Positions 20,020 to 58,693 of a stretch of DNA of 64,000 nucleotides are shown here, piece after piece (positions within the stretch are counted from its first letter, which is position 1; each line of letters opens with the position of its first letter). A program made the position numbers and the translations under genes. Source of the DNA: a virus; the IMG/VR virus record IMGVR_UViG_3300050821_006485, positions 1 through 64,000 of that record; one strand, written 5' to 3'. The notes below the pieces were generated by a model. The model did no database searches. It was not told where the DNA came from and saw only the letters and a list, made by a program, of their open reading frames with translations.

Positions 20020-21955
20020 ATGCCAAGGAAAATGGCGAAAGAAGTTAAGGAAAGACCATCATATATAAATGCTGATGGTGTTCTTGACGTTTCGAAAATA
20101 TTTAAATTCCAACCGAAACAGACGGAATTACTACGAAACGTAGAAAGAAACGGACATACTTACGTGCAGCCGGTAGCAGAACAGTGCTTATCGGTTGGTG
20201 GTATCCGAGGCGGTAGTATTATTTGCTGCATTAGTTAGTAATAACTAATTGTAAACCTAGAGAATTCGGTGGAACGCCCGTAAGGGCCAATACCGAGCCG
20301 AGCTTCTGAAAAGAAGAAGGTGTAACGACTATCTCGAAAGAGAGTAGGGAACAGCGTTCCCGAAGCACTAGGGGTCCTGCAAAGGGATCAAGATATAGTC
20401 TGGACTTATTAGTAATAATAAGAGAGTAAGCGGACGCGGCTTATTTGTAACATCATTGAAAACTCTCGGATGGGTGATGTATGGAATCATGCATTACTGC
20501 TTAGCGTTTGATGGTTGTGATATTTTAGTGCTGCGTCGAACGTATAAGGAATTGGAATCGGGTGCGATACGGGATGCACTCAATTTCACTCCTAAGGAAT
20601 TATTTTCCTATGACACCACGCGGCACGTGATGAAGTTTTTAAACGGATCAAGAGTTGTATTTGCTCACTGCGAAAATCTTTCTGAAAGAGACATAAGCGC
20701 CTTCTTAGGTCAGGCTTATAGTTTTTGCGTCGTCGATGAGTGCGGTCAATTTTCTTCCGATGCTTGGTTGAGATTATATTCAAGAACTATTGTTAATGCT
20801 ACTTGTAAACCAGACGCTTGGGGTAACTTACCAATCCCAGCGATTGTCGGCTGCACAAATCCTATTGGTCCTCACTATGAATTCTATAGAACTTTGTTTG
20901 TACAGAAGGAGCCATGGAATAAGCCGGAAGACGCAAGGAAAGATGAGCTAACTGGAATTTGGTGGAGACCAGAAGCTGGTGAATGGCTTCCCATATATGA
21001 CCCCAGTAAGTATGCGTACCAGAGAACAACAGTATTAGATAACAAGGAATTACTTAAGCGCGATCCTGGAATTCTTTATAAGCTTAATAGCTTACCAAAA
21101 GCTAAGCGTGATAAAGAGCTTTTAGGACTTGACGGGCGTTATGAGGGCGCATATTTTGACTGCTTTGATCCTTACTATCATGTTATAAATTTGCGTGAAG
21201 ACCCGGAAGCCATTATATGGCAGCCTTCTTATCAAAAAGTTTGGTGCGGGCACGACTTTGGCGCAGGAGCCGGTGGTCACGCCAGTGCGGCATATTTGTT
21301 TACAAAGGCTTTAGTAAGGGATTCAACTGGCGGAGATAATTATAGAATTAAGACTGTATGCTTTAGAGAGATGGTTACTACTGCTGGACAGACCCATAAA
21401 GAGTGGGCCGCTATCTTAGCTAATGCTTGTAAGTTACCTAATGGTGTACCGATAAAGCCAAGCGCTATTTATTTTTCTCACGAAAAGTTTGCCAGGCAAA
21501 TGGCAGGATTTGGTCATACACCGGCGGACGAATATTCCAGAGAATTAAAAGCTTTAGGGTTGCCTCCGGTAGTAAGAGCCACAACAGATCGCATAGGAAG
21601 AGCCAGCCTTTTATATAATTCCTTCAAAAATGGGGATTTAGTAATCACAGACAATTGCAGAGAGATAATCCTTGCAATACCAAATTTGATGCGGGACGTT
21701 GACAATTTGGACGACGTGAGTAAGACGGACGCTAAGGGGGACGATTGTTATGATGGTTTCTCTTACGCGCACTACGGACAATATACTGCACAGAAAAAGC
21801 CAGATGTAGAAAGAATACACGAGCACGCCGCCGGGCTTGATCCACTCGCAAAGTTTTTTTATTTACAGAAGCAGCTAGCAACGCAGGCAAATAAGTCGGC
21901 AACGTTCAAACCATCAGAAATTCCCGTGTGGCAATCAAAATTAAATCAGCAATAA
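20020..21955 (+). CDS. terL: terminase large subunit, split by a group I intron (563 aa spliced)
   Basis: ATPase-nuclease motor that packages DNA. CDS is join(20020..20214, 20459..21955). Splicing restores the Walker A motif GGIRGGKTLGW: exon 1 ends in GGT and exon 2 begins AAA ACT. Unspliced, exon 1 ends 8 codons later at TAG. Other motifs: Walker B VVDECGQF, the nuclease Asp in GHDFGAGAGG, and DAKGDDCYDGF near the C-terminus. TerL sits between the 19367 gene and a GIY-YIG homing endonuclease that starts 3 nt after its stop. Confidence 0.93.
20215..20458 (+). other. group I intron in terL (244 nt)
   Basis: P1: exon end GCGGU pairs with the internal guide GCTGC, with the U-G pair at the splice site. 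A P2 hairpin (ATTAGTTAGTAATAACTAAT) follows. The conserved core is ATTCGGTGGAACGCC...AATACCGAGCCGAGC, then GGTGTAACGACTATC and GATATAGTCTG. The last nucleotide is G (omega-G, 20458). P10 can form between exon AAA and TTT beside the guide. It has no ORF. A 137-nt stretch (20316-20452) is identical to the tail-gene intron. Confidence 0.93.
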
Positions 21956-32373: not shown

Positions 32374-33003
32374 ATGAACGGGATAATTTACAAAGTAACA
32401 AATATTGAATCTGGAACGTCTTACATTGGACAAACCACAAAAACATTGAAACAGAGGTGGACAGAGCATATTTATGATGCCACCGGTAATAGGAGCAAGG
32501 ATAAAGGATGTTATTTTCACCTTGCTATAAAGAAATATGGCCCAGAGGCATTTAAGTTGATTGTTCTGCAAGAATGCTTAAATAAAGAGGCGTTGGACTC
32601 AGTAGAAAAGTTCTATATTTCCCATTTTAATACGGTTCGTCCCTTTGGTTATAATTTGTCTCTCGGAGGCTCTGGAGTAATGCACGGTAGGAAAATGAGT
32701 GCAGAAGCCAGAGCAAAAATTAGCGCGGGGCTTATGGGAAGACCGGGAGCACAATTTAGTCATACCCCAGAAGCCAGAGCAAAAATAAGCGCATCCCTTA
32801 TGGGTAACAAAAGGTCAGTAGGTAGAAAACTTTCAGATGAAACTAAGGCTAAGATGAGAGCCGCTCATTTAGGAAGAACCTACAAAAAGAAAGACAAAAG
32901 TTTAGATTCAAGCAACGATGCTCATGATAGTGGCGAAAACACTTTAAATATGCGGATTGAGAAAGTTGCGAGTACTAAAGATGACTCAGCGATAGGCCAG
33001 TAA
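32374..33003 (+). CDS. GIY-YIG homing endonuclease with NUMOD3 repeats (209 aa)
   Basis: ATG at 32374 has AAAGGGGACAA upstream. Core GIIYKVTNIESGTSYIGQTT and catalytic Arg in LKQRWTEH, then NUMOD3 repeats (GRKMSAEARAKISAGLMGR type). Free-standing between the small head genes and the four-intron capsid gene, so it may cut intron-less capsid alleles. AT-rich. Confidence 0.9.
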   Translation: MNGIIYKVTNIESGTSYIGQTTKTLKQRWTEHIYDATGNRSKDKGCYFHLAIKKYGPEAFKLIVLQECLNKEALDSVEKFYISHFNTVRPFGYNLSLGGSGVMHGRKMSAEARAKISAGLMGRPGAQFSHTPEARAKISASLMGNKRSVGRKLSDETKAKMRAAHLGRTYKKKDKSLDSSNDAHDSGENTLNMRIEKVASTKDDSAIGQ

Positions 33004-33060: not shown

Positions 33061-35330
33061 ATGCCATTACTTGAGGCTGCTGTAGAAGCAGTCGAACTTG
33101 ATGCATTTGCTAAGGAAATCCCTAGGTAATAAGGTCGGGGATTTTATGCCAAAAATACTTAGGACCTAGTATTTCATGGAACTACAGCATATTCCATGTT
33201 CAAGGCAGAGGCTCAATATTAGGGCCTCGATAAACCCGCTCTAATTGTCTCGAAATCTGAAATGACAACGAGGCGGAAGTCAAGTTTATTTGTAACAAAA
33301 CTTGACACCGTGAGAGATCAAGCGAGAGGGAGCCAAAAGGCTATGCAATGATCCGAGCTGCATGAAACAGTAACATGCAGAGGTTAGCAGAAATGACTAA
33401 TCCAAAATACAGTAACAAAGCTGACTAATATTCCTGTGAGCAATCAGTCACAGGCAGGCGGAGTAACTCGTCCGTCATTCCGCATCCCGTTTAGGGTGCA
33501 GGCTGGCGCGTCTATCTCCCAGGGAACCGGAAATGCCGACTCCATGAACCGAGGCACTGGAAGTAAATGGGCTTCCTTTGCGCTAGCACCTGTTTACCTA
33601 TTTAACGTCTAAAAATTTCATGGACGTTTAAAATTTCGCTGTATCGGTGGAACGCCTGAAAAGGCCAATACCGAGGCAACCTGCCTAGGCAGAGAGTCCG
33701 TAACGACTACACGCGAAACAGGCATAACGCTTGATGATATAGTCTGAACTGCATGGTAACATGCAGAAGGCAGCAGAAATGACTGCCTCATAACCTAAAG
33801 TTATGTAACAATTTTTGGTGAAATTTCCTGGCTCGCCCAGGCTTCCACGGATAGCAAGCAACGCGGTCTCTTCGCCGTAAAAGCCCAGGAGATGAAGAAC
33901 TCTTTGGATGCTGCAATGCAGGGCATCGAGGGGTTAATAAATTCCGACGGGAGTGGTATGATCGACCAAATCCCGGCCACCGCAGTCATTAACAACGGTA
34001 CGGGTACTGGTGACAGTACCTCCAGCATCGTTGGGATGAACGTGGCGGTAGCATTCACCGACCAACAGACGGTAACGTTCTGGACGGTTGGTGGTGTTCA
34101 GCGTACGACCGGCGTATCCTCGGCAGTAGTTAGCTACTCCGATGGACCGAGCAACACTTTGTTCTTCAGCACCGCCCTACCGACCGGTGTGGCAGTAACG
34201 GATTACATCGTGGTGAACGGCGCGACCTACGGCTCTGGTGCCTCTATTTTGGGCATCAAGGCTTGGGACGTGAACAGCAATACCGGGAGTATCGCCGGGC
34301 TTAACCGAGCGACTTACCCAGGCCGTCTTAGCACGCCTACCATTAACTTGGCGGGTGCCGCTATTACGCCAGGCATTGCCCAGCGAGCAGAAGTGCTCCT
34401 AGGCCGTGCGTTGGGTCCTGATGCCGACAGCATTAAGTCCGGCATTTGGTATGGGCCGCCCGAGCAAGCCTTTGCGCAGAGCAATCTGATGTGAACTAAA
34501 CGCATCATCAACTGGTAACAGTTGAAAGTAAACCAAGAGAATTCGGTGGAACACCCAATAAGGTCAATACCGAGCCGAGCCTGTTAGCGCAGGAAGGTGT
34601 AACGACTATCTCGAAAGAGAGTAGGGTCTAAGTAGACTCGAAGCACTTGGCACCCGTAAGGGTTGAAGATATAGTCTGTTCTCGCAGGTAACTGTGAGAG
34701 GGTAAGCGGAAACGGCTTGCCCGCAACGAACAAGACAACGTTCAAATTGCGAACGCACAGGAAATCAAGGGCGATAAAACGCTAGACATGTCCAAGAAGT
34801 ATTTTTCGGATTAACAATAGTCCCCTCAATCGGAAACGGTTGAATGAAAACCGAGAGAATTCAGGGAAACGCCTTAGTGGCCAATCCTGAGCCGAGCCTC
34901 AAAAGAGGAAGGTGCAACGACTATCCTGTAATGGGAGTAGGGGTCAGTGACCTCGAAGCACTTGGGACCCGTAAGGGTTATGATATAGTCTGAGCTTGTA
35001 GGTAACTACAAGAGTTTAGATGGAAACGATCTAAACGTAACGTAACTGACGTTTGGTGGCCGTAAGTATCACAAGAGTTGGACAGCAACCGCAAGCCGAA
35101 TGGATTTGCTGGTGCTAGACAACTGGTACATAGGAGAGCTGTCACCGCTAGAACTGTACGATTTTGGCGGCGGCAATGTGGTAGCTCCCGTGCCCGATAT
35201 TGGCAACGGGACTTCAAATGGTAGTTATCTTACCTCCCACATGTTTGCTTATAACACATGCTTCAACCTGGCTAATGCAGCTCCGCGAGCTGGCTTATAC
35301 GTTCAGAATGCAGCTGTGCCAACTGTGTAG
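33061..35330 (+). CDS. major capsid protein in five exons (about 441-454 aa)
   Basis: CDS is join(33061..33213, 33424..33610, 33818..34492, 34741..34811, 35052..35330). The junctions are in frame and read MFKAEA|TNIPVSN, YLFNV|CEISWL, SNLM|FQIANAQ and KKYFSD|FGGRKYHKSW. The product is an HK97-fold capsid protein of the type RVQAGASISQGTGNADS ... AQEMKNSLDAAMQGIEGLI ... GRKYHKSWTATASRMDLLVL. Exon 1 contains a 39-nt stretch (33124-33162) with three in-frame stops between KEIP and DLVFHGTTAYSMF, described separately. GGAAAATAATAACT precedes ATG. Confidence 0.88.
33124..33162 (+). other. 39-nt in-frame interruption inside capsid exon 1
   Basis: The capsid frame reads ...AKEIP, then AGG TAA TAA ... 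TAG, then DLVFHGTTAYSMFKAEA in the same frame. The ends can pair: CCTAGGT (33121-33127) with ACTTAGG (33157-33163). It is far too short for a group I intron. A double frameshift (+1 near 33121, then -1 near 33163) would also avoid the stops. How the full protein is made is unresolved. Confidence 0.6.
33214..33423 (+). other. group I intron 1 of the capsid gene (210 nt)
   Basis: P1: exon end GAGGCU pairs with guide GGCCTC (33223-33228), U-G at the splice site. P10: AATATTAG just before the guide pairs with CTAATATT of the next exon. Ends with G 33423. Its core differs from the other five introns but shares GCTGCATG..TAACATGCAG and GTTAGCAGAAATGACTAA with intron 2. No ORF. Confidence 0.85.
33611..33817 (+). 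other. group I intron 2 of the capsid gene (207 nt)
   Basis: P1: exon AACGUCU pairs with guide GGACGTT over 7 bp. P10: AAATTTCAT pairs with exon GTGAAATTT over 9 bp. Core ATCGGTGGAACGCC...CAATACCGAGG, CGTAACGACTAC and GATATAGTCTG; omega-G 33817. No ORF. Confidence 0.92.
34493..34740 (+). other. group I intron 3 of the capsid gene (248 nt)
   Basis: P1: exon CUGAUGU pairs with guide GCATCA. P2 CAACTGGTAACAGTTG. Core ATTCGGTGGAACACC, AATACCGAGCCGAGC, GGTGTAACGACTATC, GATATAGTCTG. Omega-G at 34740 gives the in-frame junction ATG TTT CAA; the alternative G 34728 would create a stop. The 3' end is the least certain point. Confidence 0.85.
34812..35051 (+). other. group I intron 4 of the capsid gene (240 nt)
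   Basis: P1: exon GGAU pairs with guide GTCC. P2 TCAATCGGAAACGGTTGA. Core ATTCAGGGAAACGCC, CAATCCTGAGCCGAGC, GGTGCAACGACTATC, GATATAGTCTG; omega-G 35051. Joining gives GAT TTT GGT GGC, continuing the capsid frame. Only 71 nt of exon separate it from intron 3. Confidence 0.88.
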
Positions 35331-35461: not shown

Positions 35462-35989
35462 ATGGAAAGCAAAGTTTGTACCAATTGCAGTCTAGAAAAA
35501 CCATTTTCTGAATTTCAAGAAAATGAAAGATATGCGGACGGGTATTCTACGTGGTGTAAGGAGTGCCATAAGCAAGCTTCTACAAAAAGTAGAAAAAAGT
35601 TATCTAAAGAAAATCCTAATTATCACAAAGATAATGCTCTTAAACACAAACATAAAATAAGTTTAGAACAGTTTGAAGAAAAGCAAGTAGAGCAGGGCGG
35701 ACATTGCGCTTTGTGTTTGGCTACTAAAAGCAGTAATGGTGATAGACTAGGAGTAGACCACGATCACAGAATTTGTCCCGGAAAGTATGCTTGCGATAAG
35801 TGTCGAAGAGGTTTATTGTGCAGTTCTTGTAATGCTCGATTGGGCTACCTAGAGGGGTTTTTAGAAGAAGCTTTTGTATTTCCTTTCTTAGGCAGAGGAC
35901 AGTGGATACGGAAAGCAGTAGAATACTTAAACTACTATAAGAATGCATTATATCAAGCGTCTCTTTTGGAGTCTACCCAATGCAAGTAA
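35462..35989 (+). CDS. HNH homing endonuclease, endonuclease VII type (175 aa)
   Basis: N-terminal zinc module (CTNCSLEKPFSEF ... WCKECHKQ), then HCALC, GVDHDHRICPG and RGLLCSSCNARLGYLEGF, the active-site and Zn-binding pattern of recombination endonuclease VII / HNH. Free-standing directly after the capsid gene, another candidate driver of its introns. CAAGGAGAACGA precedes ATG. AT-rich. Confidence 0.85.
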   Translation: MESKVCTNCSLEKPFSEFQENERYADGYSTWCKECHKQASTKSRKKLSKENPNYHKDNALKHKHKISLEQFEEKQVEQGGHCALCLATKSSNGDRLGVDHDHRICPGKYACDKCRRGLLCSSCNARLGYLEGFLEEAFVFPFLGRGQWIRKAVEYLNYYKNALYQASLLESTQCK

Positions 35990-36534
35990 CTCCTCTGACC
36001 ATAAAGCAAGCTAATGAATTGATTTCCAGATTGCATCGGCACCACAAACCAGTAGTAGGACACAGATTTTCCATAGGACTTCTCAACCAAGGGGTTCTTG
36101 TAGGCGCTGCCGTAGTAGGAAGGCCAGTTGCCCGTGAAGTAGAACAATATACCATAGCAGAGGTAACTCGGCTTGTGACGGACGGAACGCCTAACGCTTG
36201 CTCAATGCTTTATTCAGCGTGTGCACGGGCAGCCAAGGCTATGGGGTTTACGAAGATTCAGACCTATATTTTGGACAGCGAACCGGGAACTAGTTTAAAA
36301 GCCTCTGGCTGGAAACTAGAAGGCAAAACGGCAGGCGGTAATTGGAACCATAGTTGGCGTAAGGGTCGTAGAGAAGATCAACCCATGGAACCCAAATCTA
36401 GATGGGGTTTGGTTCTAAACTCGGTAGAGGAAGTCCAATGTCAACCACCTTCTGCTTCGCCCGTGACCACGACAACAATTACAGAGAATCTCACAAGCCT
36501 GTGCCAGGAAAATACGATGGTCTCCCCATCGTAA
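35980..36534 (+). CDS. XF1762-family protein (184 aa)
   Basis: Recognised by HRHHKPVVGHRFSIGLL, VGRPVAREV, TRLVTDGTPNACSMLY and SLKASGWKLEG. The family is common in phages and resembles GNAT acyltransferases in layout (acceptor-binding strand, then a glycine loop), but the activity is unproven. Overlaps the HNH stop by 10 bp. The Ser/Thr-rich last 35 residues overlap the next gene in another frame and may be a late extension. Confidence 0.8.
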   Translation: MQVTPLTIKQANELISRLHRHHKPVVGHRFSIGLLNQGVLVGAAVVGRPVAREVEQYTIAEVTRLVTDGTPNACSMLYSACARAAKAMGFTKIQTYILDSEPGTSLKASGWKLEGKTAGGNWNHSWRKGRREDQPMEPKSRWGLVLNSVEEVQCQPPSASPVTTTTITENLTSLCQENTMVSPS

Positions 36535-56641: not shown

Positions 56642-56739
56642 TTCAACAACAATTTCCTGAGATTAATTACCTCAGGCAGCCGTGGGGAATGCCTACCTAT
56701 GCATGGGCATTCTCCGCGCATCTTCATAGGAGAAAAATA

Positions 56740-57393
56740 ATGCCGCATCATAAGAATACACATTGTAAGCATGGACATGAGTACACGGTAGAAAATACAA
56801 GGATATTACCTAACGGGGCAAGAGTTTGTCGAGCATGTAAGCGTGAATGGGCAAGAGAAAACACGGGATTAGAAGAGGGGGAAGTAAAGCAAAATAAAAA
56901 TCAGAACACTGACAAAACCCATTGTCTTCGTGGTCACGAGTTTACATCGGAAAACACATACATGAAGGGCGAACGTAGGATTTGTATAATTTGTAGGAAT
57001 GCCGCCCAGCGCGATAGACAAAGGATTGCAGAAGCAAAATACAGAGCGTTAAAGAAATCCAGCCCTGAATTATGGGAAAAAGAAAGACGAAGAAGAAGGG
57101 CACAACAACTTAAAAGAGTCGGTTGGAATATTGATCTTTTTGAAGAGACCCTAAACCTGCAAGAAAATAAATGCGCCGTTTGTAGAACTGTTCTAGATAT
57201 TAATGCTATAAAGAACGGCGCTACTAACCAGGCTCATGCTGACCATGAGCACGTAGAGCCTCCAAAGCCTAGAGGTATTTTATGTGGCAATTGTAATTTA
57301 GGCATTGGAAATTTAAAAGAAAACCCAGAAATTATGTTGGCAGCAATTGCCTACGTAACTAAATGGAAGGAAGAGAGGTCGTACGGGCCATAA
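56740..57393 (+). CDS. HNH/endonuclease VII-type homing endonuclease (217 aa)
   Basis: ATG at 56740 follows AGGAGAAAAATA. Two HCxxGHE zinc modules (THCKHGHEYTVENTR and THCLRGHEFTSENTY) precede NKCAVCRTVL, HADHEHVEPP and RGILCGNCNLGIGNLKENPE, the endonuclease VII pattern. It ends 22 bp before the intron-containing tail gene, so it is placed to promote homing there. Confidence 0.85.
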   Translation: MPHHKNTHCKHGHEYTVENTRILPNGARVCRACKREWARENTGLEEGEVKQNKNQNTDKTHCLRGHEFTSENTYMKGERRICIICRNAAQRDRQRIAEAKYRALKKSSPELWEKERRRRRAQQLKRVGWNIDLFEETLNLQENKCAVCRTVLDINAIKNGATNQAHADHEHVEPPKPRGILCGNCNLGIGNLKENPEIMLAAIAYVTKWKEERSYGP

Positions 57394-57415
57394 TTTATCG
57401 CAGTTAGGTAAGTAA

Positions 57416-58693
57416 TTGCCTCATCAATCAGCAATGATTGTTTGTAACCTAGAGAATTCGGTGGAACACCCGATAGGGTCAATACCGAGCCGAGCCCAGA
57501 AATGGGAAGGTGTAACGACTATCTCGAAAGAGAGTAGGGAACAGCGTTCCCGAAGCACTAGGGGTCCTGCAAAGGGATCAAGATATAGTCTGGACTTATT
57601 AGTAATAATAAGAGAGTAAGCGGACGCGGCTTATTTGTAACAATAATCGACAGCATCATTAGACGCCTTTTCTGGATTAATCACCATAGCCGATGCAGTG
57701 GACCTCCCTGAAGGCGCGAGTCCTAGAAATTGGGACGTTCAGTTTAACGTAGGTAGCGTACGCACCAGGTCCGGTTTATTGAGCGTGTACTCTTACGCGA
57801 CCACATTAATAATCACTTCCTATGTTCTTCATTACGGTATAGCAGTGTTTGGGTATACTGGCGTAGAACCAACGGTTAATGAGGGGTTTTTGTTGTCCGG
57901 TTTTATAAACAACCTTTCATATCTGAATGGCCTCCAGGTATTTGTCGTTTCCGCGACAGCAACAACCTTCTCGGTTTTCTTGCCATTTAAGGACGACGGT
58001 CCATTTTTCAATCTCACAGGTTCTGCGGTCTCCCTTTCAGGCGCATTCGCTGGGCCTAACCTAGGCAACACCGTAACTTCCACCGGGTGGACCAACCCCA
58101 GTGGAATCCTAGGTAACGTTTCTTACGCCTCGGCAGTCGGTGGCGCAGCCTTATCAGCAACAATGGTTCCTACGGCGGCAGGAAATGAGTCGTCTAGTAA
58201 TCCGGCGTGGACCGCCCCTGGCAACGTATACACTACCGGCTCGGCATTCGCCCAAGTTACTCTATCTATCGCCGCAGGTGGTGGCGGAGGGGGCGGTGGT
58301 GGTGGCGGGGGTGGAGGTGGAGGGGGTGGCGGCGGAGGCGGTTGCTTCTCCGCAGCGGTTTCCGTTCGTACCCCAGAAGGTCTTATCGAGCTGGGAAATG
58401 CGCCCGGCACTCTCCAAGTTTCTAACGAAACCGGTACGCATAGTGCGCGGCTTATCGTTCACAAGGATTACAAAGGTTGGATGGTGGTAATCGAAGAGGA
58501 TAAGCTTGTCACCATAGATCACGTTATGAGGTCCGGGGATAAATGGGAACCGGCTGGGCTTAAATATCACAATCTACGCCGAGTCTGGTTCGTGGGTACG
58601 GTCTTCGATTTACACGTTATCTCCGATAATGAGGCAGATCATCACTACATACTGTGGAACGGTGACATAGCCCATAACAAACAACTAAAATAG
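57416..58693 (+). CDS. tail protein with intron and C-terminal poly-Gly/Hint domain (350 aa)
   Basis: CDS is join(57416..57428, 57654..58693). Exon 1 is only TTG CCT CAT CAA T, and splicing gives MPHQSSLDAFSGLITIADA. The first ~210 residues are a tail-type beta protein (DLPEGASPRNWDVQF). A run of 22 Gly then leads to Cys 235 and a Hint (intein-like) domain: CFSAAVSVRTPEGLIELGN, VTIDHVM (TxxH) and IAHNKQLK (HN) at the end. Hint domains catalyse self-cleavage or splicing. The next gene seems to continue the interrupted tail protein. Confidence 0.75.
57429..57653 (+). other. group I intron in the tail gene (225 nt)
   Basis: P1: exon UCAAU with guide GTTTG (U-G at the site, one mismatch) and the 11-nt loop also seen in capsid introns 2 and 3. 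P10: AATGAT before the guide pairs with exon ATCATT, fixing the 3' site after G 57653. Core identical in plan to the terL intron; 57506-57642 is identical to 20316-20452 over 137 nt. No ORF. Confidence 0.88.

What the first reader, a model, noticed from the sequence alone, without database searches (positions are those of the whole stretch)
33061..35330. Major capsid gene split by four group I introns into five exons
Exon-guide pairing fixes the splice points, and P10 pairing supports introns 1 and 2. All junctions rejoin one HK97-type capsid frame. The smallest internal exon is 71 nt. Four self-splicing introns in the most highly expressed structural gene is exceptional; none carries an ORF, while homing endonucleases lie just before (32374) and just after (35462).
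Basis: partly seen in the sequence, partly recalled or inferred. Interest (0 to 1): 0.92.

Follow-up and report, generated by a model that had tools for sequence, protein, structure and literature searches.

The report
Coreless mini-introns beside self-splicing capsid introns
This soil-phage capsid gene is cut by four self-splicing introns and by a 39-base mini-intron that has the signals for cutting and joining but no catalytic machinery, so it probably borrows its neighbour's ribozyme; more than 20 similar mini-introns turn up in related phages.

Summary
The gene really is split, but not as described. Aligned to an intronless relative (443 aa), it has six exons and five interruptions, encoding 444 aa without internal stops. 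Four are group I introns: Rfam finds three and a covariance model built from other phages finds the fourth. It hides a conserved 51-nt exon and splits into a 39-nt insert (33124-33162) and a 210-nt group I intron (33214-33423). Two other acceptors are off by 6 and 3 nt.

The 39-nt insert is the surprise. It follows a U, ends in G, and carries a 9-bp P1 and an adjacent 5-bp P10 on one guide sequence, but has no catalytic core. Such mini-introns (23 of 32-49 nt and one of 72 nt, 13 sites, two unrelated capsid gene families, 22 contigs) show compensatory P1/P10 changes. They share sites with full introns. Wherever the contig continues, a full group I intron lies 18-120 nt downstream. Best explanation: core-deleted group I introns excised by the neighbouring intron's ribozyme, a natural counterpart of engineered 'spliceozymes'. 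The chemistry is inferred; no RNA was tested. Multi-intron capsid genes were already known (crAss-like phages); I found no report of core-less dependants.

The parts
33061..33123 (+). Exon 1 of the putative major capsid gene (63 nt)
   Evidence: Spliced alignment to intronless L001; joined ORF open, 444 aa
33124..33162 (+). 39-nt core-less mini-intron; in-frame stops TAA TAA TAG
   Evidence: Follows U, ends in G; P1 9 bp (33115-33123 with 33137-33145), P10 5 bp (33132-33136 with 33163-33167); P1 hairpin is the centroid fold; no core found by Rfam or R1
33137..33145 (+). Internal guide sequence GGGGAUUUU of the mini-intron, with P10 strand AGGUC just before it (33132-33136)
33163..33213 (+). 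Exon 2, 51 nt, DLVFHGTTAYSMFKAEA
   Evidence: Identical protein to L001 with 10 synonymous, 0 non-synonymous codon differences
33214..33423 (+). Group I intron (type B), 210 nt; core 33232-33380; P1 GAGGCU/GGCCUC, P10 8 bp
   Evidence: R1 96.8 bits, E 1.9e-18, window not in model; P7 strands GAUCA/UGAUC replace GACUA/UAGUC of relatives; no Rfam hit
33424..33610 (+). Exon 3 (187 nt)
33611..33817 (+). Group I intron, 207 nt; P1 7 bp, P10 9 bp
   Evidence: RF00028 63.3 bits; same site holds a type-B intron or an ORF-bearing intron in relatives
33818..34492 (+). Exon 4 (675 nt)
34493..34734 (+). Group I intron, 242 nt
   Evidence: RF00028 57.8 bits; acceptor set by relatives: MYNVQIANAQ
34735..34811 (+). 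Exon 5 (77 nt)
34812..35048 (+). Group I intron, 237 nt
   Evidence: RF00028 70.1 bits; acceptor set by relatives: FSDTFGGRK
35049..35330 (+). Exon 6 with stop codon
32374..33003 (+). Free-standing GIY-YIG endonuclease with NUMOD3 motif, upstream of the capsid gene
   Evidence: Pfam; about 65% identical to endonucleases inside the full site-21 intron of L012, L016, L023, the site of this window's mini-intron
35462..35989 (+). Endonuclease VII-type protein downstream of the capsid gene
   Evidence: Pfam PF02945; relatives lie downstream of the capsid gene in most loci, including intronless L001, and inside introns of L042 and L045

Best explanation
The capsid gene carries four complete group I introns and one core-less, group I-derived mini-intron. 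The mini-intron at 33124-33162 keeps only the substrate part of a group I intron: a 5' splice site U.G pair in P1, an internal guide sequence whose 5' side also pairs with the 3' exon (P10), and a terminal G. It most likely arose when the catalytic core of a site-21 intron was deleted while a complete intron lay close downstream. Inferred mechanism: the core of the downstream intron (33214-33423) docks the mini-intron's P1, guanosine cleaves at CCU|AGG, P10 holds the next exon, the exons join and the mini-intron is released; the same ribozyme then removes itself. Shown by computation: exon map, coding status of the mini-exon, P1/P10 and their covariation, absence of a core, constant neighbourhood, shared sites with full introns. 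Not shown: splicing, and which core does it.
For: Exon map against an intronless relative used as query. Keeping the insert puts three stops in frame. The mini-exon evolves as coding DNA. MCP1, the window's capsid family, and MCP2, an unrelated family matching PHROG 1357 'major head protein', give 24 distinct short inserts with P1+P10: 23 of 32-49 nt and one of 72 nt, at 13 sites in 22 contigs; L346/L347 add one of 35 nt at a further site. The shortest full intron is 193 nt. Each tabled insert follows U and ends in G; for the 23 short ones P1 is 5-9 bp and P10 4-9 bp, adjacent (gap 0, once 1). Own guide-exon pairing averages 12.55 of 13 (minimum 11) against 5.94 for swapped guides. Compensatory changes at the same site: MCP2 313.1 UUGUCU/GGACAA, UCGUCU/GGACGA, AAGUCU/GGACUU; MCP1 15.0 AGCAAA/UUUGCU, GGCAAA/UUUGCC. 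All 18 minis with another mapped insertion have it 18-120 nt downstream and it is a full intron; for full introns 19 of 54 have the next within 130 nt. De novo scan: 13 of 148 windows upstream of full introns, 0 of 135 and 0 of 132 far controls. The same site is occupied by full introns with nearly the same P1/P10 domain (L165 and L194 at MCP2 site 52).
Against: No RNA or protein evidence. P10 of the window's own mini-intron is among the shortest (5 bp), and its local minimum-free-energy fold is not P1 (the centroid is). No extra pairing between mini-intron linkers and downstream cores was found (median p 0.76), so how the core is recruited is unexplained. Most MCP2 loci were found through a type-B core motif, so the neighbourhood statistic is biased for that gene (not for MCP1 or L346/L347). 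A natural group I core splicing a second intron has no precedent that I found.
Confidence: 0.7

Rival explanations
1. The mini-intron is spliced by group I chemistry, but in trans by any group I core of the same phage rather than by the one just downstream.
For: The gene and genome hold several other cores; no specific pairing to the neighbour was found; in two MCP2 cases (L234, L246) the downstream core is of the other (Rfam) type, so no single core type is needed.
Against: Every mini-intron whose contig continues has a full intron next, 18-120 nt downstream where mapped, never only upstream or far away.
Confidence: 0.15
2. The ribosome bypasses the insert (as in T4 gene 60) and no RNA splicing of it occurs.
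For: Size (32-49 nt) and in-frame stops resemble known bypass elements (own knowledge).
Against: Take-off and landing triplets match in 0 of 23 cases; inserts fall in all three codon phases; constant U before and G at the end; P1 and P10 covary with the exons.
Confidence: 0.04
3. One reading: one 297-nt intron 1 and a five-exon gene of 425 aa.
For: CCU|AGG has a good P1 with GGGGAUU and a G can be chosen at 33420.
Against: It would discard 17 residues present in all intronless relatives and kept by purifying selection here; the only core in this stretch starts at 33232, next to its own P1 GAGGCU/GGCCUC and an 8-bp P10.
Confidence: 0.03
4. A protein (phage or host endonuclease plus RNA ligase) removes the mini-insert; the P1/P10 pairing is only a recognition element.
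For: Cannot be excluded from sequence.
Against: P1, U.G, adjacent P10 and terminal G are exactly what a group I core uses; full introns at the same sites share the same domain.
Confidence: 0.05
5. The insert is a disabling lesion and the gene copy is dead.
For: Metagenome contigs can hold defective phages.
Against: Similar inserts with compensatory changes at 13 sites in two capsid families from 22 contigs; the rest of the gene is intact and conserved.
Confidence: 0.03

Closest known systems
Group I introns in phage capsid genes (mycobacteriophage LittleE, PMC3706429; crAss-like Delta/Zeta phages, PMC7886860)
   Same: Group I introns in the major capsid gene; LittleE splicing proven by RT-PCR and N-terminal sequencing; one Zeta crAss-like MCP is split into five fragments with group I signatures in three of four gaps
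   Different: Here four small ORF-less introns plus a core-less mini-intron; relatives carry 0 to 7 interruptions at more than a dozen sites; no core-less element was described in the passages read
Spliceozymes (engineered trans-splicing Tetrahymena ribozymes, PMC4094466)
   Same: A group I core removes a separate 64-100 nt core-less intron from an mRNA, also in E. coli
   Different: Engineered, with designed recognition helices on the ribozyme; here the mini-intron brings its own guide sequence and the ribozyme is the neighbouring intron
Group III introns of Euglena plastids (own knowledge)
   Same: Short degenerate derivatives of a ribozyme intron class that need help in trans
   Different: Derived from group II introns, different chemistry and organelle
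Degenerate group I introns of lichen rDNA (PMC8527467)
   Same: Group I introns that lost self-splicing yet are removed
   Different: They lost on average about 100 nt (one is about 300 nt long) and are thought to depend on a host machinery; here nothing of the core remains
Twort and Bastillevirinae multi-intron genes (PMC11878797)
   Same: Up to three group I introns per gene, a small internal exon, exon skipping
   Different: Introns reported there average 802 nt and several self-splice in vitro; no core-less element reported in the passages read

Membership tests
Group I intron (the four full introns) | Conserved catalytic core (P3-P9 with P7) | tested here: met
   RF00028 for three; R1 for the fourth; 18 of 27 model pairs have compensatory changes in relatives
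Group I intron (the four full introns) | U at the 5' exon end paired with G of the guide (P1), terminal G | tested here: met
   P1 of the two 3'-most introns is only 4-6 bp and not significant by shuffle
Group I intron (the four full introns) | Self-splicing | not testable with these tools
   No RNA data
Group I intron (the 39-nt mini-intron) | P1 with U.G, P10, terminal G | tested here: met
Group I intron (the 39-nt mini-intron) | Own catalytic core | tested here: not met
   39 nt; no Rfam or R1 match before 33232; so it works like a group I substrate but is not filed as a group I intron
Translational bypass element | Matching take-off and landing codons | tested here: not met
   0 of 23 mini-introns
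HK97-fold major capsid protein | Sequence or fold similarity to known members | tested here: inconclusive
   No Pfam, PHROG or PDB match, unusable model; only gene order supports it

The most novel reading that the evidence does not exclude
A natural spliceozyme system: group I introns that have lost their whole catalytic core survive in phage capsid genes because the ribozyme of the next intron splices them as well as itself. This would be a non-autonomous, guide-only intron class, standing to group I introns as Euglena group III introns stand to group II introns.
Probability: 0.65. Interest if true: 0.95.

Novelty: categorically new. Interest (0 to 1): 0.88.

Why it matters
Group I introns are regarded as carrying their own catalyst. 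If core-less introns are spliced by a neighbour's ribozyme, one RNA catalyst serves several introns in nature: the step from self-splicing to a shared splicing machine that is inferred for spliceosome evolution but, as far as I found, seen for group I cores only in engineered ribozymes. It also means that gene finders and Rfam miss exons and introns in these phages, since a 32-49 nt insert is too short for any group I model. The mini-introns are small, numerous and easy to test in vitro.

Tried and rejected
AlphaFold2 of the intronless capsid protein (pLDDT 28; useless) and profile searches for its fold: no result. tblastn in isolated phages and GTDB genome contigs: no relatives. Translational bypass: rejected, no matching codons. 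Complementarity between mini-intron linkers and the downstream core: none beyond chance. A mini-insert in the terminase or tail-gene introns of the window (20215, 57400): none seen; the HNH gene before 57400 is simply upstream of the tail gene. 20-23 nt 'inserts' in L043 look like single-base indels. A 43-nt insert in L176/L195 lacks P1 and looks like an alignment artefact at the end of an upstream intron; not counted. I first thought only type-B cores serve mini-introns, but L234 and L246 have Rfam-type cores.

Full report
What was claimed and what is there. The window is part of a 101,202-base virus record.

Relatives correct the exon map. The IMG/VR collection holds 64 loci encoding a relative. 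Several are intronless (L001-L005, L038, L025, L027, L028, L055). I aligned the loci to the L001 protein (443 aa), allowing introns of 20 nt or more in any codon phase, with a mild preference for U before and G at the end. In the window this gives inserts at 33124-33162 (39 nt), 33214-33423 (210), 33611-33817 (207), 34493-34734 (242) and 34812-35048 (237). The product is 444 aa without internal stops, 88% identical to L001. Acceptors 3 and 4 move by 6 and 3 nt because relatives read MYNVQIANAQ and FSDTFGGRK there.

Four of the five interruptions are ordinary group I introns. Three match Rfam. The 210-nt one belongs to a second subgroup (called type B here) that Rfam mostly misses. A covariance model from 20 such introns of other phages (18 of 27 pairs with compensatory changes) finds it at 33232-33380 with 96.8 bits, E 1.9e-18. 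Its P7 strands GAUCA/UGAUC replace GACUA/UAGUC of relatives, two compensatory pair changes that support a functional core.

The fifth is the surprise. The 39-nt insert has three in-frame stops, so it must be removed or bypassed for the gene to be read. It follows U, ends in G, and has P1 (GAAAUCCCU with GGGGAUUUU) directly next to P10 (AGGUC with the next exon's GACCU). A group I core cannot fit in it, and none is found before 33232.

It is not a one-off. In the same capsid family (MCP1) comparable inserts lie at codon 6 (L050, 46 nt), codon 15 (L012, L016, L023, L034, 40-41 nt; L089, 39 nt) and codon 21 (L046, 49; L063, 34). A scan of viral contigs for the type-B core motif, followed by a search of the DNA just upstream for P1+P10 inserts that restore an open frame, found 13 in 148 windows and none in 267 far control windows. 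Most new ones lie in a second, unrelated capsid gene, MCP2 (PHROG 1357 major head protein, E 8.4e-16; no similarity to MCP1), for which intronless copies are common. Spliced alignment of MCP2 gave more.

Statistics on 24 distinct P1+P10 inserts, 13 sites, 22 contigs. Twenty-three are 32-49 nt and one is 72 nt, against a shortest full intron of 193 nt. All follow U and end in G. For the 23 short ones, P1 is 5-9 bp and P10 4-9 bp with at most one base between. Own guide-exon pairing over 13 positions averages 12.55 (minimum 11); swapped guides give 5.94. At single sites both helices covary with the exons: MCP2 codon 313 has UUGUCU/GGACAA, UCGUCU/GGACGA and AAGUCU/GGACUU with P1 changing in step, and MCP1 codon 15 has AGCAAA/UUUGCU and GGCAAA/UUUGCC. 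A 25th insert with the same layout (L346/L347, 35 nt, MCP2 codon 302) was found by protein search, not by core motif.

Neighbourhood. Every mini-intron with a further mapped insertion (18 of 18) has a full intron as the next one, 18-120 nt downstream. Full introns have their next insertion within 130 nt in 19 of 54 cases. For mini-introns where the alignment ended early (L158, L246, L263, L063) the covariance model finds the core just downstream; only L181 ends too soon to tell. In MCP1, sampled by protein and not by core, full introns at codons 21, 33 and 38 always had a mini-intron upstream. The model finds no core in nine intronless control loci.

Origin. Mini-introns sit at sites that hold full introns in relatives, with a nearly identical guide domain. 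At MCP2 codon 52, L165 (751 nt) begins ATCTAAAACATTTTGTACTGGT and the mini-intron of L194 begins ATCTAAAAACATTTTGTACTGGT. At MCP1 codon 21, L012, L016 and L023 have full introns encoding a GIY-YIG endonuclease about 65% identical to the free-standing one at 32374 in the window, whose codon-21 site now holds the mini-intron. This suggests that the window's lineage lost the core, and that the endonuclease now lies outside the gene; inference.

Mechanism. Inferred: the downstream core docks the mini-intron's P1 in place of its own, performs both steps with P10 aligning the exon, and then removes itself. In-vitro precedent is the engineered spliceozyme, a Tetrahymena core that excises 64-100 nt introns in trans, also in E. 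coli (PMC4094466). I found no extra pairing between the mini-intron and the core, so recruitment would rest on P1 docking and proximity. Ribosomal bypassing is unlikely: no matching take-off and landing codons in 23 cases.

Prior knowledge. Introns in phage capsid genes are known: LittleE, proven by RT-PCR and N-terminal sequencing (PMC3706429), and crAss-like phages, one with an MCP in five fragments (PMC7886860). Bastillevirinae have genes with up to three introns and exon skipping (PMC11878797). Lichen rDNA has degenerate group I introns that lost self-splicing (PMC8527467). Searches for core-less, abbreviated, remnant or non-autonomous group I introns found nothing comparable, but the library holds open-access papers only.

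Limits. There is no RNA or protein evidence. The capsid label for the window's gene rests on gene order. Most MCP2 loci were chosen by a core motif, which biases the neighbourhood count there but not in MCP1. The spliced aligner favours U and G at the ends, but not P1 or P10.

Noticed in passing
window 20020-20214 joined to 20459-21955: The large terminase gene has a group I intron (20215-20458) exactly in the Walker A motif (GGIRGG|KT); the joined frame reads ...SVGGIRGGKTLGWVMYG.
   Followed up: partly
window 57400-57650: A group I intron whose core is nearly identical to the terminase one lies near the start of a tail gene, directly after an endonuclease VII-type gene (56689-57393).
   Followed up: partly
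L034:987-5059: The record here: one capsid gene with seven interruptions (six full introns and one mini-intron).
   Followed up: yes
MCP1 codon 100 (window 33611; L026, L036; L029, L034, L042, L046): The same insertion site holds three different things in relatives: an Rfam-type intron, a type-B intron, and a 677-705 nt intron with an ORF that looks like a LAGLIDADG endonuclease.
   Followed up: partly
window 35980-36534: A Mom-like DNA modification gene (PHROG 1384, E 1e-36) follows the endonuclease downstream of the capsid gene; among the MCP1 loci searched, only the near-identical L035 had it.
   Followed up: no
L234:8740-9007: Rfam finds a permuted tmRNA (RF04321, 65.8 bits) on this viral contig.
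   Followed up: no
L222 / L325, MCP2 codon 22: A 72-nt insert with P1 and P10 but no core, the only one between 49 and 193 nt; perhaps an intermediate stage of core loss.
   Followed up: partly
L043:4858-7327: Capsid gene with apparent single-base indels; sequencing error or a decaying copy.
   Followed up: no
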